64,000 nucleotides of DNA, from assembly GCF_017565705.1 (NCBI RefSeq), contig NZ_JAGDYL010000003.1, positions 33,982 through 97,981 on the forward strand. The letters run 5' to 3'. The position numbers and the translations under genes were made by a program. The number at the start of each line of letters is the position of its first letter. The stretch's first letter is position 1. Source of the stretch: Leucobacter ruminantium (GTDB lineage: Bacteria > Actinomycetota > Actinomycetes > Actinomycetales > Microbacteriaceae). The notes under the pieces were generated by a model. It worked only from the letters and a program-made list of their open reading frames with translations. It did not search any database and was not told the DNA's origin. This document shows positions 1 through 63,718 of this stretch, piece by piece.

Positions 1-1620
1 TGGGCGACGCACGGCGGCCCGACCGACGCGAACGCGCACCCGCATCTCGGCGACGACGGGAAGCTCGCACTCATCCACAACGGCATCGTCGAGAACTTCG
101 CCGACCTGCGCGCGGAACTCGGCGACGTCGAGCTCAGCAGCGAGACCGACACCGAGGTCGTCGCCGTGCTGCTCGGCCGCGAGGTCGCCGCCACCGGCGA
201 TCTCGAGACCGCCTTCCGCAACGTCGTGAGGCGCCTCGAGGGCACCTTCACCCTGCTCGCGATGCACCGCGACGAGCCGGGCAAGATCGTCTCGGCCCGT
301 CACCACTCGCCCCTCGTGGTGGGCCTCGGCGAGGGCGAGAACTTCCTCGGCTCCGACGTGGCGGCCTTCGTCAGCTCGACGCGCCGCGCCGTGGCGGTCG
401 ACGAGGACAACATCGCGATCATCACCCCCGACGAGGTGCGCATCGTCGACTTCGACGGCGCTCCGGTCGAGTTCGCCGAGTTCGAGGTGGAGTGGAACGC
501 GGACGCCGCGGACAAGGGCGGCTGGTCCTCGTTCATGGCGAAGGAGATCAACGAGCAGCCCGAGTCGGTCGAGAACACGGTGCGAGGCCGCATCTCGGGC
601 GGCGGCGTCGTGATCCCCGAGCTCGCGGAGCTCGGGGACGAGCGCCTGCGGAGCATCGATCGCATCATCATCATCGCCTGCGGCACCGCCTCCTACGCCG
701 GTCAGGTCGCGGCCTACGCGATCGAACAGTGGGCGCGCATCCCAGTCGAGGTGCAGCTCAGCCACGAGTTCCGCTACCGCGATCCGGTGCTGAGCGATCG
801 CACCATGGTGATCTCGGTGAGCCAGTCGGGCGAGACCATGGACACCCTGATGGCCGTGAAGTACGCGATCGAGCGCGGCGTCACGACCGTGTCGGTCTGC
901 AACACGCAGAGCGCGACGATCCCTCGCGAATCCGATGCCGCGGTCTACACGCACGCCGGCCCCGAGGTGGCGGTGGCCTCGACCAAGGCGTTCACGGCGC
1001 AGATCACCGCCCTCTACCTCGTCGGCCTGCACCTCGGCCGCGTACGAGGAACGATCAGCGCCGAGGAGTCGGCTCAGGCCGTCGCACAGTTCGAGGAGCT
1101 GCCCGCGAAGCTGCGCGAGGCGGTCGACACCCACGAACAGGTCGCGCAGCTCGCGCACTGGATGGCCGACACCCGCTCGGTGCTCTTCCTGGGTCGCCAC
1201 GTGGGCTTCCCGATCGCGCTCGAGGGCGCGCTCAAGCTCAAGGAGATCGCGTACATCCACGCCGAGGGCTTCGCCGCGGGCGAGCTGAAGCACGGCCCGA
1301 TCGCGCTGATCGACCACGGCCAGCCCGTCTTCGTGCTCGTGCCGAGCCCGCGCACCGCGCCGCTCATGCACTCGAAGGTCGTCTCGAACATCCAGGAGAT
1401 CCGCGCGCGCGGCGCCCGCGTGATCGCGATCGTGGAGAAGGGCGACACCGCGGTGCTGCCCTACGCCGACGACGTGATCCGCCTGCCGCTCGCCGATGCG
1501 CTGTTCGAGCCGCTGCTGCAGGTGATCCCGCTGCAGTGGTTCGCGCTCGAGCTCTCGACCGTCAAGGGGCTCGACGTCGACCAGCCGCGCAACCTCGCGA
1601 AGTCGGTCACGGTCGAGTAG
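1..1620 (+). CDS. glmS: Glutamine--fructose-6-phosphate aminotransferase, 5' truncated by the window edge
   Basis: GlmS makes glucosamine-6-phosphate from fructose-6-phosphate and glutamine, the entry step to UDP-GlcNAc and peptidoglycan. The frame is open from base 1 and begins inside the class II glutaminase domain with WATHGGPTDxNAHPH, so about the first 70 residues, including the N-terminal catalytic Cys, lie outside the window. Two SIS domains follow, with CGTASYAG and SQSGETMDTL near 680-850 and the second around 1180-1400 containing HAEGFAAGELKHGPIALI. The C-terminus KSVTVE is the conserved GlmS tail that closes the active site. acpS starts 10 bases downstream, so the two are probably cotranscribed. 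The identification is certain; only the start is missing. Confidence 0.97.
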   Translation, partial: WATHGGPTDANAHPHLGDDGKLALIHNGIVENFADLRAELGDVELSSETDTEVVAVLLGREVAATGDLETAFRNVVRRLEGTFTLLAMHRDEPGKIVSARHHSPLVVGLGEGENFLGSDVAAFVSSTRRAVAVDEDNIAIITPDEVRIVDFDGAPVEFAEFEVEWNADAADKGGWSSFMAKEINEQPESVENTVRGRISGGGVVIPELAELGDERLRSIDRIIIIACGTASYAGQVAAYAIEQWARIPVEVQLSHEFRYRDPVLSDRTMVISVSQSGETMDTLMAVKYAIERGVTTVSVCNTQSATIPRESDAAVYTHAGPEVAVASTKAFTAQITALYLVGLHLGRVRGTISAEESAQAVAQFEELPAKLREAVDTHEQVAQLAHWMADTRSVLFLGRHVGFPIALEGALKLKEIAYIHAEGFAAGELKHGPIALIDHGQPVFVLVPSPRTAPLMHSKVVSNIQEIRARGARVIAIVEKGDTAVLPYADDVIRLPLADALFEPLLQVIPLQWFALELSTVKGLDVDQPRNLAKSVTVE

Positions 1621-1630
1621 GGTTCCCGGC

Positions 1631-2011
1631 ATGATCGTCGGGATCGGCGTCGATACGGTCGACATCGCACGCTTCGAGCGGCAGCTGGCGCGAACGCCGG
1701 CGCTGCGCGAGAGACTCTTCACCGAGTCGGAGCGCGGTCTCGCCGACGCCTCTCTCGCGGCCCGATTCGCCGCGAAGGAGGCGCTGATCAAGGCGCTGGG
1801 CGGCTCCGGCAGGCTGAGCTGGCAGGATATGGCGGTGGCGAGGGATCGCGATCGCGCTCCCGGCTTCGTCTCGACGCCCGGCCTCGATGCCGCGCTCGCG
1901 GCGCGCGGGGCCGATCGTGCGCACCTGTCGCTCACGCATGACGGCGGCACGGCGACGGCGTTCGTGGTGGTCGAGTCGACCGGCGGAGTGGAGCAGGAGG
2001 AGGGGCGTTGA
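1631..2011 (+). CDS. acpS: Holo-[acyl-carrier-protein] synthase
   Basis: AcpS transfers 4'-phosphopantetheine from CoA to the serine of acyl carrier protein, activating it for fatty acid synthesis. The 126-residue protein has the family N-terminus MIVGIGVDTVDIARF, whose Asp binds Mg2+, and the motif RFAAKEALIKALGG near residues 47-60. The length is normal. The ATG lies 10 bases after glmS. Its stop overlaps the TTG start of the next gene (TTGA), so the two are translationally coupled. In many relatives an alanine racemase gene sits between acpS and tsaE; none is present here. Confidence 0.95.
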   Translation: MIVGIGVDTVDIARFERQLARTPALRERLFTESERGLADASLAARFAAKEALIKALGGSGRLSWQDMAVARDRDRAPGFVSTPGLDAALAARGADRAHLSLTHDGGTATAFVVVESTGGVEQEEGR

Positions 2012-2622
2012 ACACCGAGATCCGAGACCCCGACGAGATGCACGCGCTGGGGGAGCGCATCGGGCGTCTGCTCGGTGCGGGGGACCTGGTGATCCTGACC
2101 GGCCCGCTCGGGGCAGGCAAGACGACGCTCACGCGAGGGATCGGCGCCGGGCTCGGCGTGCGGGGCCCCGTGCAGAGTCCGACCTTCGTGCTCGCTCGCA
2201 CGCACCCCTCCCTCGTCGGGGGTGCTCCGCTCGTGCACCTCGACGCCTACCGTCTCTCCGATGCGACCGAGCTCGACGACCTCGATATCGACTTCGAGGG
2301 ATCCGTCGTGGTCGCCGAGTGGGGCGCCGGACTCGTGGAGGAGGGCGACTCGTGGATCGAGATCGTCATCGAGCGACCCGTCGGCGGTGACGCGGAGGGC
2401 GTCGATCCGGAGACCGAGGACGCCTCGGAGGAGCCGGTCGAGCCCCGTACGGTCACGGTCACCGGTTACGGGCCGCGCTGGCTGGCCGACGCGGAGAGAG
2501 CGGCTGCTCTGCGCTCGGCGCTGCGGGAGTCGGGGTCGGAGCGCGGCGCAGGGACCGATCGCGGCGCGGCGCGGGAGCGCAGCGCCGAGGCCGGCACGGA
2601 GCAGAACGGAGCGAGCGAGTGA
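2008..2622 (+). CDS. tsaE: tRNA threonylcarbamoyladenosine biosynthesis ATPase TsaE
   Basis: TsaE is the ATPase that partners TsaB and TsaD in making the t6A37 modification of ANN-decoding tRNAs. The Walker A motif GPLGAGKTT places Lys38 on the nucleotide, followed by the switch-like SPTFVLARTHP and the HLDAYRL and VAEWGAGL motifs typical of the family. The 204-residue length exceeds the usual 150-160. The excess is a charged, low-complexity C-terminal tail from about residue 140, rich in Glu, Arg, Ser and Ala, probably disordered. The start is TTG inside the acpS stop, and the stop overlaps the GTG of tsaB. Confidence 0.93.
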   Translation: MNTEIRDPDEMHALGERIGRLLGAGDLVILTGPLGAGKTTLTRGIGAGLGVRGPVQSPTFVLARTHPSLVGGAPLVHLDAYRLSDATELDDLDIDFEGSVVVAEWGAGLVEEGDSWIEIVIERPVGGDAEGVDPETEDASEEPVEPRTVTVTGYGPRWLADAERAAALRSALRESGSERGAGTDRGAARERSAEAGTEQNGASE

Positions 2623-3721: not shown

Positions 3722-4800
3722 GCGCCGACGAGCCCCTGGTCCTGGGCATCGAGACGAGCTGCGACGAGACCGGTGTCGGCATCGTGCGGGGCCGCACCCT
3801 GCTCGCCAACACGATCGCCTCGTCGATGGACGAGCACGCCCGCTTCGGCGGGGTGGTGCCCGAGGTCGCGGCGCGTGCGCACCTCGAGGCCATGACCCCC
3901 ACGATCGAGCGGGCGCTCGCAGAGGCGGGCGTGACGCTCGACGATCTCGACGCCGTCGCGGTGACGAGCGGCCCCGGGCTCGCGGGCGCGCTCATGGTCG
4001 GGGTGTCCGCTGCGAAGGCGCTCGCGGTCTCGCGCGGGTTGCCGCTCTACGCGGTGAACCATCTCGTCGGCCACGTCGGCGCCGACCTGCTGCGCGGAGA
4101 GCAGCTGCGCCCGGCGCTCGGCGATGTCGGCGAGCTCGAGCTTCCGACGGTGGCGCTGCTGGTCTCGGGAGGGCACACCTCGCTGCTCGTCGTGAGGGAC
4201 CTCGTGAGCGACGTCGAGATGCTCGGCGAGACGATCGACGACGCAGCGGGGGAGGCCTTCGACAAGGTCGCGCGCCTGCTCGGCCTGCCCTACCCCGGCG
4301 GCCCGCAGATCGATCGGGTCGCCGCCGACGGCGACCCCCTGGCCATCCGCTTCCCGCGCGGGCTGTCCCTGCCGAAGGACATGGCGAAGCACCGCTACGA
4401 CTTCTCGTTCTCCGGGCTGAAGACGTCGGTCGCGCGCTGGGTCGAGAAGCGCGAGGCCACCGGTGAGCCCGTGCCGGTCGCCGATGTCGCCGCGAGCTTC
4501 CGCGAGGCAGTCGCCGACGTGCTCGTCACGAAGGCGCTCGCGGCCTGCGCAGACCTCGGGATCCCTCGCCTGCTGCTCGGCGGCGGCGTGGTCGCGAATG
4601 CCAGGGTGCGCGAGCTCGCCGCCTCGCGCGCCTCGCGGGCCGGCGTGGAGCTGCGCGTGCCGCCGCTGTCGCTCTGCACCGACAACGGTGCGATGATCGC
4701 CTCGCTGGGGGCTCAGCTCGTGGCGGCCGGCCGTGCACCATCCGGCCTCGATTTCGGGGCCGATTCGACGCTTCCGGTCACGGAGATCCAGGTGCGCTGA
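3718..4800 (+). CDS. tsaD: tRNA N6-adenosine threonylcarbamoyltransferase TsaD
   Basis: TsaD (formerly Gcp/YgjD) transfers the threonylcarbamoyl group from TC-AMP to A37 of tRNA. The 360-residue protein shows [14 protein letters not shown] at the N-terminus and the metal-binding HxxxH in [14 protein letters not shown] context near residues 55-62. It also has VSGGHTSLL near residue 145, [19 protein letters not shown], and a C-terminal [10 protein letters not shown]. All the catalytic motifs are intact. It is the last gene of the t6A operon; an iterated-motif palindrome and a hairpin follow at 4803-4833. Confidence 0.97.
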
Positions 4801-4802: not shown

Positions 4803-4833
4803 GAGGGATCCCTCGCCGCTCCGCGAGCGGAGC
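4803..4833. terminator. Motif palindrome and hairpin after tsaD
   Basis: The perfect 12-base palindrome GAGGGATCCCTC at 4803-4814 is two copies of the window's iterated octamer back to back. It is followed by GCTCCGC-GA-GCGGAGC at 4818-4833, a 7-bp stem with a very tight loop. No U-run follows, as is usual in high-GC actinobacteria. A role in ending the tsa operon transcript is inferred from position. Confidence 0.45.
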
Positions 4834-7319: not shown

Positions 7320-7460
7320 GGGATCCTCGATTCCGTCGTTACGGCATCCGCGCGAGCGCGCCGGAGCACTGGTCCCGATTATCCCACAGGGCCGCTCGGG
7401 AGGCCGGAGGCCGGCCGGTGGGTGCGCGGCGTTCGCTTTCGGCGATCCCTCGCCCTCTGA

Positions 7461-10562: not shown

Positions 10563-10584
10563 CGGGCGGGATGGATGGGATCCC

Positions 10585-11505
10585 TCACGGGATGAGGCCG
10601 TGTCTCCTGGCCGTCGCGACCGCCGCGTGGCGGGTCGACGCCTCGAGCTTCGACATCGCCGTCTTGAGATAGCTTTTGACGGTGCTCTCGGCGAGGCCCA
10701 GCGCCTGCCCGATCTCGGCGTTCGTTCCGCCGAGCGCCGCGTGCGAGACCACGTCGAGTTCGCGGGCGGTGAGCCGCGGCGCATCGCCGCCCTCGGACGC
10801 CTCAGCGGTATCGGCCTGCGTCGCTTCGATGCGCAGCGAGGCGGCGGAGCTCTCAGGTGAGGCGGCTTCGATCGTCGCGAGACTGCGCTCGAGCCGGGCG
10901 AGGCGGCTGCGCAGCGCTTCGTCGTGAACCGTTGCCGCGATGCTGCGCAGTTCGGCGTGGCTGCTGCGCAGCGTCTCGAGCACGGGTCCGGGCAGCCCCC
11001 GGGGCGCCTGCTCCGTCGCCAGGCGCGCGGCGAGGCGCGTCGCCCGGCGATCGATCTCGTCCTGCACCTCGATCTCGCGAGCGAGCTCGGCACCGACCGA
11101 GGCCGCCGCCTGCGCGAACTCGGCCCCTCCGAACGTGCTCGTGCGCGCGCCCCCGTAGAGCACGGCCCTGGTGGCGCCGCCGACGATGACGGGATAGGCG
11201 AACAGCGCCCGGATCCCTTCGCCGAGCACCTGCGAGTCGTAGTCGTGGGTGATGTGGCGCGAGCTCCGGTAGTCCATGGTCAACCGGGGCCGCCGCTCGA
11301 TCATGGCCCTGCCGCCGAGGCCTCGGCCGGAGTGCACGCACAGGCCGAGCAGGCTCTGCGTGCGGTTGCCCGTGATCGACGTCACGGTCGCGATCCCTCG
11401 CGATTCGAAGCCCCCGAAGACGAGGGGAAAGCGGGTCGCGGCCGCGAACTCGGCCACTGCGAGATCGAGCAGGTTCTGGTGGGCCTGCGGATCGAGTCGC
11501 TGCAT
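10585..11505 (-). CDS. GAF-like sensor / LuxR-family transcriptional regulator
   Basis: The 306-residue protein has a GAF-like N-terminal half, about residues 20-150 (for example HSGRGLGGRAMIERRPRLTM and LFAYPVIVGGATRAVLYGG). A central region of about 150-215 is predicted helical. The C-terminal LuxR DNA-binding domain is LTARELDVVSHAALGGTNAE onward, with recognition segment AESTVKSYLKTAMSKL. I chose the ATG at 11505; a TTG four codons upstream is possible. It is divergent from the prpE-DUF485-actP operon across about 104 bases, so it is the likely regulator of short-chain fatty acid use. That role is inferred from position; the ligand is unknown. Confidence 0.85.
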   Translation of the reverse strand: MQRLDPQAHQNLLDLAVAEFAAATRFPLVFGGFESRGIATVTSITGNRTQSLLGLCVHSGRGLGGRAMIERRPRLTMDYRSSRHITHDYDSQVLGEGIRALFAYPVIVGGATRAVLYGGARTSTFGGAEFAQAAASVGAELAREIEVQDEIDRRATRLAARLATEQAPRGLPGPVLETLRSSHAELRSIAATVHDEALRSRLARLERSLATIEAASPESSAASLRIEATQADTAEASEGGDAPRLTARELDVVSHAALGGTNAEIGQALGLAESTVKSYLKTAMSKLEASTRHAAVATARRHGLIP

Positions 11506-11609: not shown

Positions 11610-13589
11610 GTGAGCACAGCAATATCTGTTCCCCGCCCAGGAGATCGCTATCCCGAGGTCATCTCACGGAGCATCGAGGATCGCGACGCGTTCTGGCTCG
11701 ATGCGGCCGAGAGCGTGTCTTGGGAGACCCGGCCGACCCGCACCATCGACGAGCGCAGCGCGAGCGAGTGGCGGTGGTTTCCCGACGGCAGGCTGAACGT
11801 CTGCTACAACGCGCTCGACCGGCATGTCGAGGCCGGGCGCGGCGCCGAGGCGGCCCTGATCTACGACTCCGCGATGACGGGCACCCGCGCGAGCATCAGC
11901 TACGAGCAGCTGAGGGATCACGTGGCCCGCTTCGCTGGCGTGCTGCACGACGCGGGCGTCGTCGCAGGCGACCGCGTGCTGATCTACCTGCCGATGACGC
12001 CGGAAGCGGTGATCGCGATGCTCGCCTGCGCGCGCATCGGCGCGATCCACTCGGTCGTCTTCGGCGGCTTCGCGGCGAACGAGCTCGCGGTCCGGATCGC
12101 GGACGCGAAGCCCCGCGTGATCGTCACCTCCTCGGGCGGCCTCGAACCGAATCGCGTTGTCGAGTACCTGCCGCTCGTGCAGCGGGCGCTCGAGATCGCG
12201 GGCGGCCCGGAGTCGGGCGTCGAGACGGTGATCGTGCGCGACCGCGACGCCGTGCCGGGCTCGGCCGCCGACTACGCGGACGAGCAGGGGATCGCGTGGC
12301 GGGACTGGGCGGAGCTCGAGGACCGGGCGACGCCGGCCGATCCCGTGCCCGTGCGCTCCGAGGATCCGCTCTACATCCTCTACACCTCGGGCACCACGGG
12401 CAGCCCCAAGGGCGTGGTGCGCGACAGCGGCGGCTACGCGGTCGGGCTCGGCTGGGCGATGCGCAACATCTACGACTTCGGCCCGGGCGACACGATCTTC
12501 ACCGCCTCCGATGTCGGCTGGGTGGTCGGCCACTCCTTCATCGTCTACGGGCCGCTGCTCGCGGGCGGCACGACGGTGCTCTACGAGGGCAAGCCGGTGG
12601 GAACGCCGGATCCCGGGGCCTTCTGGCGCATCCTCTCGAGCTACGGCGCGAAGATGCTCTCCACAGCACCCACGGCGCTTCGCGCGATCCGGCGCGAGGA
12701 TCCCGAGCTCGTCGAGCTCGCGAAGTACGATCTCTCCTCGCTGCGAGCCGTCTACCTCGCGGGCGAGCGGATGGATCCCGAAACCTGGCACTGGATCAAC
12801 GACGGTCTCGGAGTGCCGGTGGTGGACCACTGGTGGCAGACCGAGACCGGCTGGATGATCTGCGCGAATCCGCTCGGCATCGAGACGCTGCCGTCGAAGG
12901 CCGGTTCGACCTCGGTGCCCATGCCCGGCTTCGACGTGCGCATCGTCGACTCGAAAGGCGAGGACATCACGGCTCCCGGCGTCGAGGGCAACATCGCGAT
13001 CAGGCTGCCGCTCGCGCCTGGCGCGCTGCTCGGCATCTGGGGGAGCGAGCAGCGCTTCGTCGACTCCTACCTGTCGGCGTTCCCCGGCTACTACGCCACC
13101 GGCGATGCCGGGCACTACGACGAGGACGGCTACCTCTTCGTGATGGGCCGCACCGACGACGTGATCAACGTTGCAGGGCACCGGCTCTCGACGGGCTCGC
13201 TCGAGGAGGTGCTGACGCAGCACCCCGCCGTTGCCGAGTGCGCGGTGATCGGCGTGCACGACGAGCTCAAGGGGCAGCGGGCCGCGGGCTTCGTCACCCT
13301 GAAGCACGGCGAGGAGGTGGTGCGCGAGGAGCTTGCGGCCGAGCTGGTGCGCATGGTGCGCGAGCACATCGGGCCCGTGGCCGCCTTCCGCGACGTCACC
13401 ATCGTGGAACGGCTGCCGAAGACGCGCTCGGGCAAGATCCTGCGCAAGACGATGCGCCAGATCGTCGACGGCGAGGAGTACCGAGTGCCCGCCACCATCG
13501 AGGATCCGACCGTGATCGACGCGCTGATCGAGGCCCTCGGCGACACGGTCTCGGCTCCGCCGACGCAGGCGGTGTCGGTGCCGCGCTGA
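11610..13589 (+). CDS. prpE: Propionyl-CoA/acetyl-CoA synthetase (AMP-forming, PrpE-like)
   Basis: The 659-residue enzyme activates a short-chain acid to its acyl-CoA via an acyl-AMP. The P-loop YTSGTTGSPKG begins at residue 258, the A5 motif is DHWWQTETGW near residue 407, and RSGKILRK supplies the catalytic lysine at residue 609. Acetyl-CoA synthetases usually read DTWWQTETGG at A5. The DHWWQTETGW form resembles propionyl-CoA synthetases, so PrpE is my preferred name, but acetate is not excluded given the acetate symporter downstream. The GTG at 11610 lies seven bases after AAAGGAG. An ATG four bases upstream is in a different frame. Confidence 0.85.
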   Translation: MSTAISVPRPGDRYPEVISRSIEDRDAFWLDAAESVSWETRPTRTIDERSASEWRWFPDGRLNVCYNALDRHVEAGRGAEAALIYDSAMTGTRASISYEQLRDHVARFAGVLHDAGVVAGDRVLIYLPMTPEAVIAMLACARIGAIHSVVFGGFAANELAVRIADAKPRVIVTSSGGLEPNRVVEYLPLVQRALEIAGGPESGVETVIVRDRDAVPGSAADYADEQGIAWRDWAELEDRATPADPVPVRSEDPLYILYTSGTTGSPKGVVRDSGGYAVGLGWAMRNIYDFGPGDTIFTASDVGWVVGHSFIVYGPLLAGGTTVLYEGKPVGTPDPGAFWRILSSYGAKMLSTAPTALRAIRREDPELVELAKYDLSSLRAVYLAGERMDPETWHWINDGLGVPVVDHWWQTETGWMICANPLGIETLPSKAGSTSVPMPGFDVRIVDSKGEDITAPGVEGNIAIRLPLAPGALLGIWGSEQRFVDSYLSAFPGYYATGDAGHYDEDGYLFVMGRTDDVINVAGHRLSTGSLEEVLTQHPAVAECAVIGVHDELKGQRAAGFVTLKHGEEVVREELAAELVRMVREHIGPVAAFRDVTIVERLPKTRSGKILRKTMRQIVDGEEYRVPATIEDPTVIDALIEALGDTVSAPPTQAVSVPR

Positions 13590-13655
13590 GCGGCGCGATC
13601 CCTCATCTTCCCCGTCCGATCCCAGATCTTCCCATCCATGAGGCAAGGAGGCCCC

Positions 13656-17882: not shown

Positions 17883-18368
17883 ATGGAGATCATGCGACTG
17901 CAGCCCAAGCCCGCCGACTATCCGCGCATCCGGAAAGCGCTGAGCTTGTACAAGGTGACCTCGGTGATCACCGGCGTCATGCTGCTGCTGCTCTGCGCCG
18001 TGATGGTGATGAAATACGCCTTCGGCGTGCAGCTCTTCCTCTTCACCCCCGACGGCTTCGCGCACTTCTACCCGATCGCGCAGGAGGGGCTCGAGAGCGA
18101 GTTCAAGCCCGAAGGCTTCGATCTGTTCCGGGCCATCCTCATCGCGCACGGCTGGTTCTACGTCGTCTACCTCGTCTCGGACTTCATGCTGTGGAGCCCG
18201 ATGCGATGGAGCTTCTGGCGCTTCATCCTCATCGCGCTCGGCGGCGTGATCCCCTTCATGTCCTTCTTCCTGGAGGCCCGCATCGTGCGCGAGGTCACCG
18301 AGTTCCTCGATTCGACCGCAGCCGTTCCAGCGGCTCCCGACTACGAAAGCGCAAAGGATCCCTCTTGA
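17883..18368 (+). CDS. DUF3817 integral membrane protein
   Basis: The 161-residue protein shows the DUF3817 pattern: a basic N-terminus, [20 protein letters not shown], a short periplasmic loop with [15 protein letters not shown], then [16 protein letters not shown] and [23 protein letters not shown]3817 genes commonly precede guaA in actinobacteria; the function is unknown. ATG 17883 or ATG 17892 could be used, the latter having GGAG just upstream. Its stop overlaps the TTG start of guaA. Confidence 0.85.
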
Positions 18369-50619: not shown

Positions 50620-51696
50620 ATGATGCCTGCACGCCCCTCATCCCTCGCGATCCGTCGCGCCGTTCCCGTCGCGGTCGTGGCGGCCGCGGCGCTCGGCCTC
50701 GCGCTCACCGGCTGCTCCGGCTCGCCGGACGAGGCCGACTCCCGGAAGGTCACCCTCGTGGTGCACGACGCCTTCCCGAACGAGGAGTTCGCGAAGGCCG
50801 CGAGCGCCGCGACCGGATACGACGTCGAGGTCATCACGGGAGGCGAGGGAGGCGAGCTCACGAACAAGCTCGTGCTCACCCGGGGCGCCCCCATCGCCGA
50901 CGCCTTCTACGGCGTCGACAACACCTACGCCTCCCGCCTGATCGAGAACGACGTGGTCGAGCCCTACACCCCGGAGGGGCTGCCCGCCTCGGCCGACGAG
51001 TACGCCTTCGACGGCTCGGGATCCCTCACCCCCGTCGACGTGGGCGCGACCTGCATCAACATCGATACCGAGTGGTTCGCCGAGCACGGCATCGCCGAAC
51101 CCAGCAGCTACGAAGACCTCGCAAGGCCCGAGTACCGCGACCTGAGCGTGCTGCTCGACCCGCTGTCCTCGTCGACCGGAGGCTCCTTCCTGATCGGCAC
51201 CGTCGCCGAGTTCGGCGAGGACGGCTACCTCGACTACTGGCAGCGCCTGCTCGACAACGGCGCCCGCCTCGAGCAGAACTGGAGCGACGCCTACTACGGG
51301 CAGTTCTCGGCCGCGAGCGACGGCGACAGGCCGATCGTTCTCTCGTACAGCTCCTCGCCCGTTGCGACCCTGAACGACGACGGCACGGCATCCTCCTCGC
51401 GTGCGCTGCTCGACACCTGCACGTCCGAGGTCGAGTACGCGGGTGTGCTCGCGGGCGCCGCGAACGCCGAAGGCGCGCGGGCGGTCGTCGACTACCTCGT
51501 CTCCTCCGAGTTCCAGGCCACGATCCCCGACACCATGTACATGTACCCGGTCGATGCTGACGCCGGGCTGCCCGAAACCTGGGCGGAGTTCGCGCCGATG
51601 CCGAGCCGCGAGCAGCTGCGCGACCTGCCGGCCTCCGAGGTCGACGCGGGCCGCGAGGGCTGGCTGAAGCGGCTGGGCGAGCAGATCGGGCTCTGA
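50620..51696 (+). CDS. thiB: Thiamine ABC transporter substrate-binding lipoprotein
   Basis: The 358-residue protein has a lipoprotein signal ending LALTGC, with Cys32 as the lipidated residue. The mature domain resembles ThiB/TbpA: TLVVHDAFPNEEFAKAASAA, KLVLTRGAPIADAFYGVDNT, and VLLDPLSSSTGGSFLIGTV. The TPP riboswitch upstream supports thiamine as the ligand. Two adjacent ATGs (50620, 50623) are possible. The permease gene follows 50 bases later. Confidence 0.92.
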   Translation: MMPARPSSLAIRRAVPVAVVAAAALGLALTGCSGSPDEADSRKVTLVVHDAFPNEEFAKAASAATGYDVEVITGGEGGELTNKLVLTRGAPIADAFYGVDNTYASRLIENDVVEPYTPEGLPASADEYAFDGSGSLTPVDVGATCINIDTEWFAEHGIAEPSSYEDLARPEYRDLSVLLDPLSSSTGGSFLIGTVAEFGEDGYLDYWQRLLDNGARLEQNWSDAYYGQFSAASDGDRPIVLSYSSSPVATLNDDGTASSSRALLDTCTSEVEYAGVLAGAANAEGARAVVDYLVSSEFQATIPDTMYMYPVDADAGLPETWAEFAPMPSREQLRDLPASEVDAGREGWLKRLGEQIGL

Positions 51697-51746: not shown

Positions 51747-53429
51747 ATGAGGCGGAGCGCGTGGGGCGTCGCCGGATGGACGGCCGCGGTGGCGCTGCCG
51801 CTCGCCTTCCTCATCGTCTTCTTCCTGTGGCCGGTCGTCGCGCTCGTGGCGACCGGGTTCGGCGGGGGCGTCACGGGCGGCGGGGTCGACCTCGGCGGCA
51901 TCGCCGAGGTGTTCGGCTCCCAACGCACCTGGCGCGTCATCGGCAACACCCTCTCGCAGGCGGGGCTCGCGACCGTCGTCTCCGTGCTGCTCGGCGTGCC
52001 CGCGGCCTACGCGCTCTACCGGCTGCGGTTCCCCGGGCAGACGCTGCTGCGAGGGATCCTGACCGTGCCGTTCGTGCTGCCGACGGTGGTCGTCGGCGTC
52101 GCGTTCTCCGCGCTGTTCGGTCCGGGCGGGCTGCTCGAGTTCCTGGGTCTCGACCGATCCCTCGCCGTCGTCGTGCTCGCCCTCGCCTTCCCGAACGTCG
52201 CGGTGGTCGCGCGCACCGTGGGCGGCTTCTGGGCGCGGCTCGACGACAGCTCCGAGCAGGCCGCGCGCGTGCTCGGAGCCGGCAGGCTGCGGGCCTGGCT
52301 CATGATCGTGCTGCCGGCGCTCGCCCCCGCGCTCGCATCCGCCGCCGCGCTCGTGTTCCTCTTCTGCTCGACGTCGTTCGGCACGGTGCTGATCCTGGGC
52401 GGCAGCCGACAGGCGAACGTCGAGACGGAGATCTACCGCCTCACCGTGCAGTTCCTCGATCTGCGCGGCGCCGCCGTGCTGTCGCTCGCGCAGTTCGCGA
52501 TCGTGGGGGCGACGCTCGTCGTCTCGTCGCGTCTGCGACGGGCCGGGGAGCGCGCCGTCGAACTCCGCGAGGAGCGGCGCGACCTCGCGAAGCGGCCGGA
52601 GCTGCGCGACGCACCCGTGCTCGTCGTGTTCGCGGCGACGGTGCTGCTGCTCCACGCGCTGCCGCTCGCGGTGCTGGTGGCACGCTCGCTGCGCGACACG
52701 GCCGGCGCATGGAGCCTCGCCAACTACGTCGCGCTCGTGGACCCGCCGGAGACCCTGCCGCTCGACGGCCCCGTGATCGGGGCGATCTGGTTGTCGCTGC
52801 GCTTCGCGGTGCTCGCCGCGCTCATCGCGATGACGCTCGGCGCCCTGCTGGCGCTCGTGCTGTCGCGGAGACCGGGATCGCGCGCGCTGCGGCGCGGCAT
52901 CGACCTGTTCGACGGCGTCGTGATGCTGCCGCTCGGGGTGTCTGCGGTGACCCTCGGCTTCGGCCTCCTGCTGACCATGCACCGGCCGTTCGGCATCGGC
53001 TTCGACCTGCGCACCTCGACCGTGCTCATCCCGATCGCGCAGGCGCTCGTGGCGCTGCCGCTCGTCGTCCGGGTGCTGCTGCCGGTGCTGCGAGGGATCG
53101 ACCCCGCGCTGCGGGAGGCCGCCGCCACGCTCGGCGCAGACGCGTTCGACGTCCTGCGCAGGGTCGAGCTGCCGATGCTCGGGCGCTCCGCGGGGCTCGC
53201 GCTCGGCTTCGCCTTCGCCGCGTCGCTCGGCGAGTTCGGGGCGACCTCGTTCCTCGTGCGGCCGGGAGCGCAGACGCTGCCGGTCGCGGTGGCGGAGCTG
53301 ATCGGGCACCAGGCGCCCGGCTCGTACGGTGCGGGGCTCGCGGGGGCGGTGGTGCTCGGCACGCTCACTGCGGGGATCATGCTGCTCGCGGAGCGGATGC
53401 GCGCCGACGGCGCGAGGGCGGAGTTCTGA
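51747..53429 (+). CDS. thiP: Thiamine ABC transporter permease (fused two-domain)
   Basis: The 560-residue protein has about twelve membrane segments and two copies of the permease EAA loop. EQAARVLGAGRLRAWLMIVL lies near residue 170, and EAAATLGADAFDVLRRVELP near 465. This duplicated layout is that of ThiP and related iron/thiamine permeases. The stop overlaps the ATG of the next gene (TGATG). A thiQ ATPase would normally follow; it does not. Confidence 0.9.
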   Translation: MRRSAWGVAGWTAAVALPLAFLIVFFLWPVVALVATGFGGGVTGGGVDLGGIAEVFGSQRTWRVIGNTLSQAGLATVVSVLLGVPAAYALYRLRFPGQTLLRGILTVPFVLPTVVVGVAFSALFGPGGLLEFLGLDRSLAVVVLALAFPNVAVVARTVGGFWARLDDSSEQAARVLGAGRLRAWLMIVLPALAPALASAAALVFLFCSTSFGTVLILGGSRQANVETEIYRLTVQFLDLRGAAVLSLAQFAIVGATLVVSSRLRRAGERAVELREERRDLAKRPELRDAPVLVVFAATVLLLHALPLAVLVARSLRDTAGAWSLANYVALVDPPETLPLDGPVIGAIWLSLRFAVLAALIAMTLGALLALVLSRRPGSRALRRGIDLFDGVVMLPLGVSAVTLGFGLLLTMHRPFGIGFDLRTSTVLIPIAQALVALPLVVRVLLPVLRGIDPALREAAATLGADAFDVLRRVELPMLGRSAGLALGFAFAASLGEFGATSFLVRPGAQTLPVAVAELIGHQAPGSYGAGLAGAVVLGTLTAGIMLLAERMRADGARAEF

Positions 53430-54808: not shown

Positions 54809-54851
54809 GAGGGATCCCTATCTGTTCGATGAATGGAGGTCTGTGCGGGGC

Positions 54852-55532: not shown

Positions 55533-56302
55533 TCGCCGAGCACCTCCCTCACGTGCGCGAGATAGCTCTGACCACGGTCGCGCCTCGCGGCGTCGACCTC
55601 GACGATGTCGTGCAGCCTGCCCGACTCGAACACCGCCGCGCGATCGCAGATCGCCTTCACCGCCTCGAGTTCGTGGGTGACGAGCGCGATCGTGGTGCCG
55701 AAGCGCTCGCGGGTGGCCGAGAGCAGGTCGAGGATCTCGCTCGTCGTGTGCGTGTCGAGGGCGGAGGTCGGCTCGTCGCAGAGCAGCAGTGAGGGCTCCG
55801 TGACGAGCGCTCGCGCGATCGCGACGCGCTGCTTCTCGCCGCCCGAGAGCTGCGCGGGGTAGTGGTCGACGCGGTGCCCGAGACCCACGAAGTCGACCAT
55901 CTCGCGGACTCGAACCGAGTCGGGGCCCGAACGCGCCTTGCGCCGCTGCAGCCGCAGCGGCAGCTCGACGTTCTGCCGCACGGTGAGGTTGCCGACGAGG
56001 TTGTAGGCCTGGAAGACCACGCCGATGCGGTGCCGCATGCGGTTCATCTGCGACTTGCCGAGCCCTGCGAGGTCGGTGCCCTCGACCAGCACGCGCCCGG
56101 AAGTGGGGTGGTCGAGGCCGTTCATCAGCCGCAGCAGGGTCGACTTGCCCGCGCCGCTCTCGCCGAGCACGCCGAAGATCATTCCGCGAGGGATCGCGAA
56201 GTCGACGTCGGCGAGGGCGGTCACGGCCGCGGGGCCATCGCCGAAGCTCCGAGTGACGTTCCGGAACTCGACGGCGGGAGTCGCAGGGGTGGGCGCTGTC
56301 AT
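55529..56302 (-). CDS. metN: Methionine ABC transporter ATP-binding protein, short form
   Basis: The 257-residue ATPase has Walker A GESGAGKSTLLRLMNGLDHP, Q-loop region VFQAYNLVGNLTV, signature LSGGEKQRVAIARAL, Walker B LLCDEPTSALD and the switch His in VTHELEAV. Typical MetN proteins are about 340 residues, with a C-terminal NIL/ACT-like domain that senses methionine. That domain is absent here, so trans-inhibition by internal methionine should be missing. The start ATG at 56302 is clear; upstream frame openness is not coding. Confidence 0.9.
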   Translation of the reverse strand: MTAPTPATPAVEFRNVTRSFGDGPAAVTALADVDFAIPRGMIFGVLGESGAGKSTLLRLMNGLDHPTSGRVLVEGTDLAGLGKSQMNRMRHRIGVVFQAYNLVGNLTVRQNVELPLRLQRRKARSGPDSVRVREMVDFVGLGHRVDHYPAQLSGGEKQRVAIARALVTEPSLLLCDEPTSALDTHTTSEILDLLSATRERFGTTIALVTHELEAVKAICDRAAVFESGRLHDIVEVDAARRDRGQSYLAHVREVLGE

Positions 56303-57735: not shown

Positions 57736-59394
57736 ATGGCAGTCCAGAGCCACGACCCCAGCCTCTACGAGCACCGCGACGTCGTCCCGGTGCGGCGAGC
57801 CCTCATCTCGGTGAGCGACAAGACCCGTCTGCTCGATCTCGCCGCGGCGCTCGCGGGTGCGGGCGTCGAGATCGTCTCGACCGGCTCGACCGCTCAGACC
57901 ATCCGTGACGCGGGCCACCCCGTCACCGACGTGGCCGAGGTCACCGGTTTCGCCGAGGCGCTCGACGGTCGTGTGAAGACGCTGCACCCGGCGGTTCACT
58001 CGGGCCTGCTCGCCGATCTGCGCCTCGCCGATCATCGCGAGCAGCTCGAGCAGCTGGGCTTCGCCCCCTTCGAGCTCGTGGTCGTGAACCTCTACCCGTT
58101 CGAGGAGACGGTCGCGTCGGGCAAGCCGGCGGCCGACGTCATCGAGAACGTCGACATCGGAGGCCCCGCCATGGTGCGCGCCACGGCGAAGAACCACGCG
58201 AACGCCGCGATCGTCGTCTCTCCGGCCCGCTACGACGAGGTCATCGCGGCCGTGAACGCGGGCGGCACCACGCTCGCGCTGCGCCGATCCCTCGCCACCG
58301 AGGCCTTCGTGCACACCGCGCAGTACGACGCAGCGGTGGCGAACTGGTTCCTCGACCAGGAGGACGCCGAGTGGGGCGATGCGCCCGTGAACGAGGACGC
58401 GCAGGCCGAGTCCTCCGTCGACAGCATCTTCGAGGCCACCGAGGGCTATGTGGGGTACGAGACCTTCGGCCTGCGCGAGGCGGTGCTGCGCTACGGCGAG
58501 AACAGCCACCAGCGCGCGGCGCTCTTCACGGAGAACGAGGGTGCGGGCATCGCCCAGGCGACCCAGCTGCACGGCAAGGAGATGTCGTACAACAATTACG
58601 TCGACGCCGATGCCGCTCTGCGCGCGGCGTACGATCACGAGCGCCCCGCCGTCGCGATCATCAAGCACGCCAATCCCTGCGGCATCGCCGTCGCCCCTGA
58701 GGGCGCGGCCGATCCGATCGCCGCGGCGCACGAGCTCGCGCACGCCTGCGACCCCGTGTCGGCGTTCGGCGGCGTCATCGCCGCCAACCGCATCGTCACG
58801 GCGGGTATGGCGAAGACCGTCGCCGAGATCTTCACGGAGGTGATCGTGGCGCCGGGCTTCGAACCCGAGGCGCTCGCGATCCTCACGCAGAAGAAGAACG
58901 TGCGCCTGCTCGTGCTGCCCGAGAGCTTCGCCCAGAATCCGGTCGAGTTCCGCCAGGTGTCGGGCGGCTTCCTGCTGCAGGACGCCGACCGCGCCTTCAA
59001 GCCCGCGGCCGAGTGGGAGCTCGCGACGGGCGAGCCTGCGGACGCCGCGACGCTCGCCGAGCTCGAGTTCGCATGGCGGGCCTGCCGCGCCGTGAAGTCG
59101 AACGCGATCCTGCTCGCGTCGGGCGGCGCCTCCGTGGGCGTCGGCATGGGTCAGGTGAACCGCGTCGACTCGTGCCGCCTCGCGGTGCAGCGCGCGGGGG
59201 AGCGGGCAGCCGGCTCTGTGGCCGCCTCCGACGCCTTCTTCCCGTTCGCCGATGGTCTGCAGGTGCTGCTCGACGCCGGTGTTCGCGCCGTGGTGCAGCC
59301 CGGCGGATCGGTGCGCGACGCCGAGGTCGTCGAGGCCGCGAAGGCCGCGGGCGTCACCATGTACTTCACGGGTGAGCGGCACTTCTTCCACTGA
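57736..59394 (+). CDS. purH: Bifunctional AICAR formyltransferase/IMP cyclohydrolase
   Basis: PurH carries out the last two steps to IMP. The 552-residue protein has the cyclohydrolase domain first ([54 protein letters not shown]). The formyltransferase domain follows, with [31 protein letters not shown] and [15 protein letters not shown]. The C-terminus [13 protein letters not shown] contains the conserved RHFxH. All motifs are intact. The ATG follows AGAAGGAG. Confidence 0.97.
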
Positions 59395-59495
59395 TCGGCC
59401 GGGGATCCGGCCGCGGTCGGCGCCAACGCGCCCGTGCGACTGCGGCAGGATCCCTCGCACATAACGCACCGAACCGAGATAAGCGAGGAATCAAC

Positions 59496-59873: not shown

Positions 59874-59901
59874 GGGCGAGGGATCCGCGGATCCCTCGCC
59901 C
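59874..59901. terminator. Perfect 28-base palindrome built from two iterated motifs
   Basis: GGGCGAGGGATCCG and its exact reverse complement meet at a GC centre, followed by TCTTTTGCG, a short U-rich stretch on the plus strand. Each half contains the window-wide GAGGGATC octamer. It lies between the converging small membrane protein and META lipoprotein genes, so it probably terminates transcription. Confidence 0.85.
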
Positions 59902-59924: not shown

Positions 59925-60299
59925 CTACCCGTCGTGGCGCTCGAGCGTGCCGATCTCGTCGCCGTTCTCGTCGAAGAGGGTGAGCGTGCCGCCGTCGAGG
60001 CTCGCGCTGCGGGCCTGGGAGAGCCACGTGTCGACGCCCTCGCAGAACATGAGCGTGGAGCGCATGACCCCGAGGTCGATCGTGCTGCCTTCGGCGGCGT
60101 AGCTGCCGCCGACGCTGTTGCAGCCGTCGGTGCCGCTGTAGTCGCCCGTCGTCTCGGAACCGGTGAACTCGAGCGAGGGGCGACCCTTCTGCGAGGGATC
60201 GCCCCATGTGCCGACGAGCGCGGGCTGGGACGCGGAGCAGGCGGTCGCACCGATGAGCAGTGCGGCCGCGACGACGGCCGAGCGCAGGATCTTCTTCAT
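59925..60299 (-). CDS. META domain lipoprotein
   Basis: The 124-residue protein has a lipoprotein signal (KKILRSAVVAAALLIGATAC) with Cys21 lipidated, then a META-domain-like beta fold. Supporting segments are LVGTWGDPSQKGRPSLEF, GTDGCNSVGGSYAAEGSTID and MRSTLMFCEGVDTWL; the GCN and the later Cys are typical of META/HslJ. The function is unknown; HslJ relatives are heat- or antibiotic-induced. The ATG at 60299 is clear and divergent from the aldolase gene. Confidence 0.85.
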   Translation of the reverse strand: MKKILRSAVVAAALLIGATACSASQPALVGTWGDPSQKGRPSLEFTGSETTGDYSGTDGCNSVGGSYAAEGSTIDLGVMRSTLMFCEGVDTWLSQARSASLDGGTLTLFDENGDEIGTLERHDG

Positions 60300-60461: not shown

Positions 60462-61370
60462 ATGCCCCTCGCCAGCACCGTCGACATGGTTCGCACCGCA
60501 CGCTCGGGCGGCTACGCCGTGCCCGCCGTGAACATCGCGGACGACCTCTCGATGCGCGCCGTGATCGCAGCGGCAGAGGCGTACCGGTCGCCCGTGATCC
60601 TGCAGACCTCGGTCAAGACCGTGAAATCGATGGGCGTGGACCGTCTCGGCATGATCGCCCGCGCTGCGGCCGAGGCCGCGACCGTGCCGGTGTCTCTGCA
60701 CCTCGACCACTGCCCCGACCGCGCGGTGATATCCTCGGTGATCTCCCACGGCTGGACATCGGTGCTCTTCGACGCCTCCGACCGGCCGCTCGAGACCGCC
60801 CGTGCGGAGACGGCCGAGGTGGTCGCCGAGGCGCACGCCGCGGGCGTCGAGGTGGAGAGCGAGATCGAGAACATCGTCGGAGTCGAGGACGGGGTGGGAT
60901 CCGACGAGGCGGTGCACGCCTACTCGGCGCGCACGCTCGCGGAGGTCGCCGAAGAGACGGGTGCCGACCTCATCGCGCCGCAGCTCGGCACGGCGCACGG
61001 CCTCTACACCCGCGCTCCCGAGCTGCTTCCCGGCCGGGTACGCGAACTCGCGGCGCTGACGGACATCCCGGTCGTGCTGCACGGAGGCACCGGCCTCGAC
61101 GAGGCCGAGTTCGCGGAGTTCATCGAGGCGGGCGTCGGCAAGGTCAACATCTCGACGGCGCTCAAACTCGCGTACATGCATGCGGCCCGCGATCACCTCG
61201 CCGAGTGCGAGCGTACGGGCGTGTGGGAACCGGTGAAGCTGTTCGACGCCGTCTCCGCCCGCATCGAGGCCGAGATCGGCGACCACATCGCGGCCTTCGG
61301 CGCTGCCGGGAAGGCCGGGCCCGAGGGATCGGCGGGGCGGGCCACGGCGGTCGGGGAGGTCGCGGCGTGA
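60462..61370 (+). CDS. Class II fructose-bisphosphate/ketose-bisphosphate aldolase-like protein
   Basis: The 302-residue protein carries the class II aldolase metal site: LHLDHCPD (His), EVESEIENIVG (Glu), PQLGTAHGLY and VLHGGTGLDEAEF (His). GKVNISTALKLAYMHAARDH follows. It is closer to the GatY/KbaY/IolJ-like group than to the glycolytic Fba in general layout, so the sugar phosphate is uncertain. The ATG at 60462 follows AAGGAG. Its stop overlaps the GTG of a CbbY-like phosphatase. Confidence 0.82.
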   Translation: MPLASTVDMVRTARSGGYAVPAVNIADDLSMRAVIAAAEAYRSPVILQTSVKTVKSMGVDRLGMIARAAAEAATVPVSLHLDHCPDRAVISSVISHGWTSVLFDASDRPLETARAETAEVVAEAHAAGVEVESEIENIVGVEDGVGSDEAVHAYSARTLAEVAEETGADLIAPQLGTAHGLYTRAPELLPGRVRELAALTDIPVVLHGGTGLDEAEFAEFIEAGVGKVNISTALKLAYMHAARDHLAECERTGVWEPVKLFDAVSARIEAEIGDHIAAFGAAGKAGPEGSAGRATAVGEVAA

Positions 61371-62140: not shown

Positions 62141-62178
62141 CCGAGGGGCGAGGGATCCGCGGATCACTCGCCCCTCGG
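62141..62178. terminator. Large hairpin after the HAD gene, containing the iterated motif
   Basis: The 38-base near-perfect palindrome has one mismatched pair. Its left half contains GAGGGATC; the right half has GATCACTC, a single-base variant of the complementary motif. It lies between the convergent phosphatase and aldehyde dehydrogenase genes. Confidence 0.8.
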
Positions 62179-62197
62179 CGTGTTCCGACGGCGCTCG

Positions 62198-63718
62198 TCA
62201 CCCGCGCGCGAGGGATCCCCAGTGCTGCGACGCGCCGGTGGGCGAGACCGCCTGCGGCACCCCGAGCGGGTTGTCGTCGCGCAGCGGGAGGGGCAGGAGC
62301 GCCGCAGGGGCGTTCTGGAACGCGACGGGGCGCAGGAAGCGCGAGATCGCGGCGGTACCGACCGAGGTGCTCGAATCGTTGGTGGTTGCAGGCCACGGCC
62401 CGCCGTGCTGCTGAGCCGGCGTGACGGCGACGCCCGTGGGCCACCCGTCGAAGAGTACGCGCCCGACCTGGCGCGCGAGGGCCTCGACGAGCGCCCGCAG
62501 ATCGGCCGCGTTCGCGGTGCCGCCGTCGGCCTCCTCGGCGCCCAGGTGCACGGTGCCCGAGAGATTGCCCTCGAAGAACTCGGGCACGAGCGCCGCGAGG
62601 TCGGTGTCCTCCGGCACCTCGACGAGGATGGAGAACGGGCCGAACACCTCCTCGGTCAGGGTCTCCCTGGCCGCGCGAAAGGCCTGGAGGGGGATCGCGA
62701 GGACCGTCGGGAGCGCCCATCCCTGCCCCTCCGAGTCGAAGCGCAGCGCGCCGTCGACCACGGGCCTGATCCCGTTGACCGCGAGCGCTGCGTCGCGCCG
62801 CTCCTCGAAGGCACGGGCGATGCCGGGGTTCAGGAGGCGGTGCTCGGCCGACCCGTCCGCGGCGGCGCGCACGGCGTCGGGCAGGGCGGATCCCTCGGGG
62901 ATGAAGACGACGCCGGGCTTCGTACACAGTTGGCCGGCCGAGCCCGAGACGCTGGCGAGGAACCCCGCCGCGAGCGCGTCCGCGCGCTCCGCGACGGCGG
63001 CCGCCGTGACGAAGACGGGGTTGACGCTGCCGAGCTCGCCGAAGAACGGGATGGGCGACGGCCGCGACGCTGCGATGTCGGCGAGGAAGCGACCCGCGGG
63101 GATCGAACCCGTGAAGGCCCCGGCGGCGATGCGCGGATCCCTGAGCACCGCGACGCCCTCCTCGCGTCCGTGGATCAACTGGAAGGTGCCGTCGGGCATG
63201 CCTGCGGCGCTGAGGGCATCGGCGGCGACCTCGGCAGTGGCGTCGGAGAGTTCGGGGTGACCGGGGTGCGCCTTCACGATGAGAGGGCAGCCCGCCGCGA
63301 TGATCGCGGCCGAGTCCCCGCCCATGACCGAGAAAGCGAACGGGAAGTTCGAGGCCGCGAAATTGATGACAGGGCCGAGCGGCACGTGCACGCGTCGGAT
63401 ATCGGGACGCGCGCCGAGCGCGAAGGCGTCGTCGGCCGGGTCGATCCGGGCGTCGAGATGAGCGCCCTCCGCCACGGTGTCGGCGAACAGGCGCAGCTGC
63501 ACGGCCGTGCGGGCGACCTCGCCGTTCAGGCGCGCCTCGGTGAGCCCCGTCTCGCGCATCGCGATGCCCACGAGTCGGTCGCGGTCGGCCTCGAGCGCGT
63601 CGGCCACCGCGACGAGCGCGCGGGCGCGCACAACCGGCTCGACGGCTGCCACGGCCGGGGCTGCGGCCGCCGCGCGGGCGACGACGGCTTCGATCGCGGG
63701 GGAGAGGGCGTCGGTCAT
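62198..63718 (-). CDS. Aldehyde dehydrogenase, 2,5-dioxovalerate (alpha-ketoglutarate semialdehyde) type
   Basis: The 506-residue protein belongs to the group that oxidises 2,5-dioxopentanoate to 2-oxoglutarate in sugar-acid or hydroxyproline pathways. VHVPLGPVINFAASNFPFAF, IPFFGELGSVNPVFVTAAAV with the general-base Glu, and SGSAGQLCTKPGVVFIPEG with nucleophile Cys265 are diagnostic. ALPTVLAIPLQAFR and the C-terminal AISRFLRPVAFQNAP follow. The upstream frame openness past the ATG at 63718 is not coding; GGAGGAACATCC lies just before the start. Confidence 0.87.
   Translation of the reverse strand: MTDALSPAIEAVVARAAAAAPAVAAVEPVVRARALVAVADALEADRDRLVGIAMRETGLTEARLNGEVARTAVQLRLFADTVAEGAHLDARIDPADDAFALGARPDIRRVHVPLGPVINFAASNFPFAFSVMGGDSAAIIAAGCPLIVKAHPGHPELSDATAEVAADALSAAGMPDGTFQLIHGREEGVAVLRDPRIAAGAFTGSIPAGRFLADIAASRPSPIPFFGELGSVNPVFVTAAAVAERADALAAGFLASVSGSAGQLCTKPGVVFIPEGSALPDAVRAAADGSAEHRLLNPGIARAFEERRDAALAVNGIRPVVDGALRFDSEGQGWALPTVLAIPLQAFRAARETLTEEVFGPFSILVEVPEDTDLAALVPEFFEGNLSGTVHLGAEEADGGTANAADLRALVEALARQVGRVLFDGWPTGVAVTPAQQHGGPWPATTNDSSTSVGTAAISRFLRPVAFQNAPAALLPLPLRDDNPLGVPQAVSPTGASQHWGSLARG

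What the first reader, a model, noticed from the sequence alone, without database searches (positions are those of the whole stretch)
918..62896. GAGGGATC/GATCCCTC is a highly iterated DNA motif across the whole window
By hand I count about 31 GATCCCTC (for example 918, 4560, 7444, 10579, 11392, 13597, 13998, 17461, 22354, 22661, 24543, 29132, 38290, 45833, 51020, 58286, 62889). I count about 31 GAGGGATC (for example 1840, 2135, 17299, 23634, 28048, 29692, 35837, 44560, 46241, 47074, 49158, 52051, 56188, 60193, 61323). At roughly 70% GC about two or three in total would be expected. Most extend to GCGAGGGATC. About two thirds are inside genes, where the motif is read in different frames and on both strands, so it is not a protein repeat. 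It resembles HIP1, DNA uptake sequences, Chi or a methylation-linked motif. I know of no such signal described for Microbacteriaceae.
Basis: partly seen in the sequence, partly recalled or inferred. Interest (0 to 1): 0.9.

Follow-up and report, generated by a model that had tools for sequence, protein, structure and literature searches.

The report
Self-tag DNA word in Leucobacter
One Leucobacter species carries the same eight-letter DNA word about 2,500 times while its sampled relatives do not, and the word likely works as a "self" tag by which cells recognise their own kind's DNA when taking it up.

Summary
GAGGGATC/GATCCCTC occurs 63 times in the window (5.6 expected) and 2,548 times in the genome, against 7 for the reversed control. 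With proteins and codon usage held fixed, 974 coding copies are seen where 74.2±7.9 are expected.

The burst is specific to this genome. The other 53 Leucobacter genomes hold 9-388 copies; 397 family and 395 phylum genomes hold at most 376. Sites are newly made: 2 of 128 aligned relative 8-mers match, against 27% for background 8-mers. Nine low-GC, acquired-looking stretches hold 2 sites in 175 kb.

The word is directional, balanced between strands, denser between genes and near stop codons, and enriched as inverted pairs (107 inward against 10 outward). This is the profile of the DNA uptake sequences of Neisseria and Haemophilus. It does not fit palindromic HIP1 or polar Chi.

Best reading: an uptake-type motif spread by molecular drive, apparently the first in a high-GC Gram-positive. 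Against it: comEC is now split by an integrated element, no pilus ATPase was found in the 53% of the genome examined, and uptake is untested.

The parts
918..925 (-). motif copy; strand = the strand on which GAGGGATC is read (also for all rows below)
1840..1847 (+). motif copy
2135..2142 (+). motif copy
2296..2303 (+). motif copy
4560..4567 (-). motif copy; relatives encode GVPR or AVPR here, own GIPR
4803..4814 (.). two overlapping inverted motif copies (GAGGGATCCCTC) 2 bp after a gene end
7444..7451 (-). motif copy
10579..10586 (-). motif copy
11392..11399 (-). motif copy
11912..11919 (+). motif copy
13597..13604 (-). motif copy
13998..14005 (-). motif copy
17299..17306 (+). motif copy
17461..17468 (-). 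motif copy; own DPS, relatives DPQ, APQ or EPQ
18357..18364 (-). motif copy
22354..22361 (-). motif copy
22661..22668 (-). motif copy
22932..22939 (-). motif copy
23634..23641 (+). motif copy
23659..23666 (+). motif copy
23798..23805 (+). motif copy
24543..24550 (-). motif copy; the only window site with an identical 8-mer in aligned relatives (2 of 5)
26698..26705 (-). motif copy
27936..27943 (-). motif copy
28048..28055 (+). motif copy
29132..29139 (-). motif copy
29692..29699 (+). motif copy inside the UvrD/PcrA-like helicase gene; arginine codon CGC in relatives is AGG here
29953..29960 (+). motif copy
32975..32982 (-). motif copy
33104..33111 (-). motif copy
34496..34507 (.). two overlapping inverted motif copies at a gene end
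35837..35844 (+). motif copy
38290..38297 (-). motif copy
39278..39285 (+). motif copy
39957..39964 (-). motif copy
43230..43237 (-). motif copy; Ile-Pro ATC CCG in all 5 relatives, ATC CCT here
44145..44152 (-). motif copy
44560..44567 (+). motif copy
44934..44941 (+). motif copy
45457..45464 (+). motif copy
45833..45840 (-). motif copy
46241..46248 (+). motif copy
46675..46682 (+). motif copy
47074..47081 (+). motif copy
47181..47188 (+). motif copy
49158..49165 (+). motif copy
51020..51027 (-). motif copy
52051..52058 (+). motif copy
52156..52163 (-). motif copy
53092..53099 (+). motif copy; Arg-Gly-Ile in all 5 relatives and here, rewritten to CGA GGG ATC
54809..54816 (+). motif copy
56188..56195 (+). 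motif copy
58286..58293 (-). motif copy
59449..59456 (-). motif copy
59878..59897 (.). spaced inverted pair between two convergent genes; predicted 13-bp hairpin, -27.4 kcal/mol, followed by a T-rich stretch
60193..60200 (+). motif copy
61323..61330 (+). motif copy
62150..62157 (+). motif copy
62210..62217 (+). motif copy
62889..62896 (-). motif copy

Best explanation
GAGGGATC, present 2,548 times in this Leucobacter genome and not expanded in the relatives sampled, likely acts as a DNA uptake sequence: a directional word that would raise the chance that a fragment of the species' own DNA is taken up by natural transformation. SHOWN: genome-wide excess beyond codon usage, core [G>C,A,T]AGGGATC with a weaker GGC before it and C or G after it, no strand polarity, de novo origin in this lineage by both synonymous and amino-acid-changing substitutions, near absence from acquired-looking stretches, excess between genes and as inward-facing inverted pairs. 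INFERRED: fragments carrying the word were taken up and recombined more often, so alleles with the word spread by molecular drive; a surface or pilus-linked protein reads the word; ComEA, ComEC and DprA did the rest. ALSO INFERRED: uptake is now switched off or rare in this strain, because a mobile element nearly free of the motif, hence recent, has split comEC; elements that gain by blocking transformation are known in other transformable bacteria.
For: Density .95/kb in 68 of 95 held stretches chosen as motif-rich.77/kb over the whole genome. Codon-preserving null fails: 974 vs 74.2 +/- 7.9 in all 95 unmasked stretches. De novo: 2 of 128 ungapped relative 8-mers match against 27% of background 8-mers, at about 81% DNA identity; the commonest mismatch numbers are 3 (43), 2 (32) and 4 (21); codons at the motif are identical in 31% of 407 comparisons against 58% elsewhere. 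The commonest precursor GCGGGATC is depleted, 109 against 271 scaled from relatives. Asymmetric unit: AGGGATC 10.3x relatives, but the palindrome CGGGATCCCG 0.30x (11 vs 20 copies) and GATC 1.02x. Strand balance 642:639 with no heterogeneity between stretches. Density 1.97/kb between genes vs .78/kb within; 3.09/kb near stops vs 1.49/kb near starts. Inward pairs within 50 bp 107, outward 10, direct 44. 9 of 79 stretches of 15 kb or more hold 2 sites in 175 kb at GC .58-.66. ComEA and DprA families present. Known uptake sequences likewise are non-palindromic, about 10% inverted repeats, without orientation bias and commoner outside genes (PMC1939737, passages), and adopt inverted pairs between genes (PMC3630211, passages).
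Against: Uptake was not tested. comEC is split, so this strain is probably not transformable now; the N-terminal piece has no Pfam match and rests on the tblastn hit. A pattern scan for pilus ATPases in 53% of the genome gave three hits, which are an ABC transporter, FtsK and a DEAD-box helicase. None of 25 relatives sampled shows a dialect of its own, whereas Neisseriaceae dialects mark clades. One-mismatch forms show no overall excess (748 vs 738 scaled), although uptake-driven motifs are reported to show a graded excess (abstract passage). Most overlapping inverted pairs are inside genes (42 of 72), and few hairpins have a T-run.
Confidence: 0.5

Rival explanations
1. A HIP1-type motif: a methylase marks the word and methylation-biased mismatch repair, or a chromosome-structural role, creates and keeps the sites inside the cell, with no DNA uptake involved.
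For: Density is near that of HIP1 (1000-2000 per Mb in PMC4390886, passages); the palindrome GGGATCCC is an alternate HIP in two thermophilic Synechococcus; AGGGATCCCT is enriched 67x, though on 124 vs 1 copies; absence from acquired-looking DNA fits this too.
Against: HIPs are palindromic, and extensions keep them so; here CGGGATCCCG falls to 0.30x while AGGGATC with either C or G next rises equally. No MethyltransfD12 (Dam-type) gene in the genome; the one N6_N4 methylase resembles those of many motif-poor relatives (family in 42 of 54); the one C5 methylase lies in a nearly motif-free stretch and the family is in 32 of 54. Type I, III and other methylase families were not surveyed; one type I methylase sits on a motif-free stretch.
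Confidence: 0.2
2. Another biased DNA-transfer route, such as gene-transfer-agent packaging or chromosome mobilisation that prefers fragments with the word, drives the same molecular spread.
For: Explains the same drive signature, also with comEC split.
Against: No such machinery was looked for; known examples with an 8-mer preference are not known to me (recall).
Confidence: 0.12
3. A recombination or segregation signal (Chi- or KOPS-like) selected for genome maintenance.
For: GC-rich octamer at high frequency.
Against: No strand polarity: 642 against 639, and F:R ratios across 68 stretches are if anything too even (chi-square 32.5 on 67 df), with no bias to the coding strand (202:228, p=.23). 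Chi and KOPS orientation with replication is recalled, not looked up.
Confidence: 0.05
4. Copies of a mobile short repeat (REP/MITE type) or a by-product of codon bias or contamination.
For: Some relatives have REP-like intergenic hairpins with a partly similar GGATCC-TGCG sequence.
Against: Coding copies arose by point changes at conserved codons, not insertions; codon null excluded; contamination estimate .34%.
Confidence: 0.03

Closest known systems
DNA uptake sequences (DUS) of Neisseriaceae, GCCGTCTGAA dialects
   Same: Short non-palindromic word, very high copy, both strands without polarity, inverted pairs between genes, lineage-specific spelling (PMC3630211, passages)
   Different: High-GC Gram-positive host; no known dialect family around it (25 relatives sampled); 42 of 72 overlapping pairs are in genes; no receptor identified; comEC split
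Uptake signal sequences (USS) of Pasteurellaceae, AAGTGCGGT
   Same: Core plus weaker flank, excess outside genes, about 10% inverted repeats, amino-acid changes tolerated (PMC1939737, passages)
   Different: Different word, phylum and presumably pilus type; flank here is GC-rich
HIP1 and alternate HIPs of cyanobacteria, incl. GGGATCCC
   Same: Copy number and near-identity of the inner GGGATC (PMC4390886, passages)
   Different: Not palindromic; no cognate methylase found in three families; burst seen in one species only
Chi sites
   Same: GC-rich octamer scattered through genes
   Different: No strand polarity

Membership tests
DNA uptake sequence (DUS/USS) | Directly shown to raise uptake or transformation | not testable with these tools
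   needs an uptake assay
DNA uptake sequence (DUS/USS) | Extreme genome-wide over-representation beyond codon usage | tested here: met
DNA uptake sequence (DUS/USS) | Non-palindromic word on both strands without polarity | tested here: met
DNA uptake sequence (DUS/USS) | Excess outside genes and as inverted pairs | tested here: met
   unselected stretches give 326 in 308 kb between genes vs 974 in 1,421 kb within, a weaker contrast because acquired stretches are poorly gene-called
DNA uptake sequence (DUS/USS) | Uptake and processing genes present and whole | tested here: not met
   ComEA and DprA families present but comEC split in two pieces on two contigs
DNA uptake sequence (DUS/USS) | Type IV filament machinery | tested here: inconclusive
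   none in 53% of the genome by sequence pattern
DNA uptake sequence (DUS/USS) | Sequence-specific receptor (ComP-like) | not tested
   no search made
HIP1 / alternate HIP | Palindromic unit | tested here: not met
HIP1 / alternate HIP | Cognate DNA methylase (GATC/CGATCG type) | tested here: inconclusive
   no Dam-type gene; single N6_N4 and C5 genes not specific to this genome by family presence; other families not surveyed
Chi / KOPS | Strand polarity | tested here: not met
   (on contigs, not a closed chromosome)

The most novel reading that the evidence does not exclude
A DNA-uptake self-recognition code arose from nothing within one species of a high-GC Gram-positive genus, wrote itself into about 2,500 places by molecular drive, including through amino-acid changes, and has just been disabled by a mobile element that plugs comEC. 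It would be the first uptake sequence outside Pasteurellaceae and Neisseriaceae known to me, and the first case where the ancestral, motif-free state is still visible gene by gene in close relatives.
Probability: 0.42. Interest if true: 0.92.

Novelty: new variant of a known kind. Interest (0 to 1): 0.78.

Why it matters
How uptake sequences begin is an open question, because in Neisseria and Haemophilus the motif is shared by whole clades. Here some 2,500 copies appear in one species while relatives at about 81% DNA identity show what stood at each site before, so the order and cost of motif creation can be read directly. If uptake is confirmed, it shows that self-marking of DNA evolved again in Actinobacteria. 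If not, an unknown force has still rewritten thousands of codons in one lineage. Either way the motif also marks which DNA is native and which is recently acquired.

Tried and rejected
Markov nulls alone: third-order models flag other words in many actinobacteria (72 of 80 named loci were long enough to test; top words CGACGTCG in Arthrobacter citreus, 26 vs 1.6, and CGGCATCC in Microbacterium, 39 vs 6.2), so they cannot carry the claim. I moved to codon-preserving shuffles. Those other genera were not given the codon test, so they may hold motifs of their own.

Dialects in relatives: 25 relatives were tested on 15-20 kb each with the codon null. The strongest, AGCGCTGC in G415 (11 vs 1.1), is 744 genome-wide against 190-659 in the other 53 genomes, so it is not comparable. 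GCAGGATGAC in G438 proved to be a REP-like hairpin repeat, 290 copies there, 150 in G401, 105 in G441.

Even spacing: after merging neighbours the gaps fit an exponential (CV 1.00, p=.23). Overall loss of one-mismatch words: not seen. Viral contigs with the 16-mer palindrome: 3 found, none motif-rich apart from a 1.45-kb piece holding one overlapping pair. A relative of the comEC-side recombinase in viral contigs: none. Literature search for the octamer as text: 1,596 papers, the 15 listed mostly unrelated papers (primers, viruses, cloning), not useful. Paper searches returned nothing; one search returned 5 papers, none about Leucobacter competence by title and abstract.

Rows dropped: 187 of 315 site-by-relative pairs (not aligned, or gaps); 6 masked stretches; searches use stretches selected at >0.5 motifs/kb and >5 kb (32 or 68 sequences), one search does not select.
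Full report
WHAT IS THERE. The whole genome (3,305,448 bp, 69 contigs) has 1282+1266 copies; the same word read backwards has 4+3. Genes were called with a simple codon-based caller of my own, so gene ends are approximate. Shuffles that keep every protein and each gene's codon counts predict 3.2 +/- 1.7 copies in the window's genes, 43 are there; in all 95 unmasked stretches held (1,729,378 bp) they predict 74.2 +/- 7.9 and 974 are there, no shuffle of 40 exceeding 94.

WHO HAS IT. The genus is Leucobacter: a helicase protein of the window matches L. chironomi DSM 19883 best (88%), and two contigs of genus-mates have the lengths of named Leucobacter contigs. Among 54 genomes of the genus the other 53 have 9 to 388 copies. 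Among 398 genomes drawn from the family the next highest has 376, and among 396 drawn from the phylum again 376, the same genome. The search draws on one genome per species and not all species are held, so a nearer sister with the motif may exist.

THE UNIT. The core is AGGGATC, with G before it preferred (A, C and T there total 167 against 28 scaled from relatives), G-G-C further upstream and C or G after. It is directional: AGGGATC is 10.3 times denser than in 40 stretches of 25 relatives, equally when followed by C or by G, while the palindrome without the A, CGGGATCCCG, is at 0.30 (11 vs 20 copies) and plain GATC at 1.02.

HOW IT IS LAID OUT. In 68 stretches chosen as motif-rich the strands are balanced, 642 to 639, with no difference between stretches (chi-square 32.5 on 67 df). 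Density is 1.97/kb between genes and 0.78/kb within; without selection 326 in 308 kb and 974 in 1,421 kb. Between genes it is denser near stops, 3.09/kb, than near starts, 1.49/kb. Within 50 bp, inward-facing pairs number 107, outward 10, direct 44; 72 of the inward pairs overlap as GAGGGATCCCTC, 42 of them inside genes, 26 between; of 35 spaced pairs 24 lie between genes. All 10 spaced intergenic pairs of the first sample fold into hairpins (mean -28.5 kcal/mol, mean z -5.8 against simple shuffles), but few have a T-run, so terminator use is possible and not shown.

IT IS NEW. Five relatives at about 81% identity were aligned to the window. Of 128 ungapped comparisons at motif sites 2 are identical, against 27% for 8-mers at large; most differ at 2 to 4 positions. 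Codons touching the motif are identical in 31% of 407 comparisons, 51% for neighbours and 58% elsewhere. Many changes are synonymous and bring in rare codons, for example Arg-Gly-Ile rewritten to CGA GGG ATC at 53091 while all five relatives keep other codons; others change the protein, such as GVPR or AVPR to GIPR at 4558. The precursor GCGGGATC is depleted to 0.40. The overall number of one-mismatch words is unchanged, 748 against 738, which a simple graded drive would not predict.

NATIVE AND ACQUIRED DNA. Stretches fall into two kinds. 9 of 79 stretches of at least 15 kb hold 2 sites in 175,276 bp at GC .58 to .66; 5 more are intermediate. The motif-poor ones carry type I restriction genes, a metal-transport ATPase, glycosyltransferases, and a serine recombinase with a mobilisation protein. 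So the motif marks resident DNA, as any of the drive explanations predicts.

THE UPTAKE GENES. ComEA and DprA families are present. comEC is in two pieces: residues 71-356 on C15 and 341-894 on C48. A large serine recombinase (Resolvase and Recombinase domains) ends 6 bp from the start of the C-terminal match (L065:15614-17269 and 17275). The flank on C15 up to the break has no motif in the first 30 kb of the contig and 11 from 30,783 to 39,502; the flank on C48 has 2 before the break. Six more of the 54 genomes show the same split near residue 345, with the two pieces 39 to 55 kb apart in the five where both are on one contig. That both own flanks belong to one element is inferred. Mobile elements that disrupt competence genes, comEC among them, are known in other transformable bacteria (PMC4774983 and PMC12637031, passages). 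A pattern scan for a pilus ATPase in the held 53% found only an ABC transporter, FtsK and a helicase.

READING. The layout matches uptake sequences point by point: non-palindromic, about a tenth in inverted repeats, no orientation bias, excess outside genes (PMC1939737, passages), and inverted pairs between genes with lineage-specific dialects (PMC3630211, passages). I therefore hold that it is most likely an uptake sequence spread by molecular drive, at 0.5. The HIP reading keeps 0.2: copy number is alike and an alternate HIP, GGGATCCC, contains the same inner letters (PMC4390886, passages), but the unit here is not a palindrome, no Dam-type methylase is present, and the single N6_N4 and C5 methylases belong to families common in the motif-poor relatives. 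Chi-like polarity is absent. That uptake sequences are so far described from Pasteurellaceae and Neisseriaceae is from the abstracts seen and from recall; searches showed none for Actinobacteria or Microbacteriaceae in an open-access library.

Noticed in passing
own genome C15:28742-29608 and C48:17275-18942; G323, G208, G096, G420, G412, G399: comEC is split near residue 345 in 7 of 54 Leucobacter genomes; in the own genome a large serine recombinase abuts the break. comEC looks like a recurrent integration site in this genus; the elements of the other six were not examined.
   Followed up: partly
G438 (L073-L076), G401, G441, G410: REP-like intergenic repeat with GGATCCTGCG ... CGCAGGATGAC arms, sometimes in tandem arrays; 290, 150, 105 and 82 copies of GCAGGATGAC.
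   Followed up: partly
L128 (Arthrobacter citreus); L102, L115, L108 (Microbacterium); L124 (Flexivirga caeni): Strong third-order excess of CGACGTCG, CGGCATCC and CGGCATAC in 14-22 kb loci; not tested against codon usage.
   Followed up: no
own genome C15:1-20000 (L014): Type I restriction-modification genes (HsdR, HsdM) on a stretch without the motif.
   Followed up: no
   Followed up: no
68 motif-rich stretches of the own genome: Forward and reverse copies are more evenly balanced than chance (chi-square 32.5 on 67 df); inverted pairs explain part of it.
   Followed up: no
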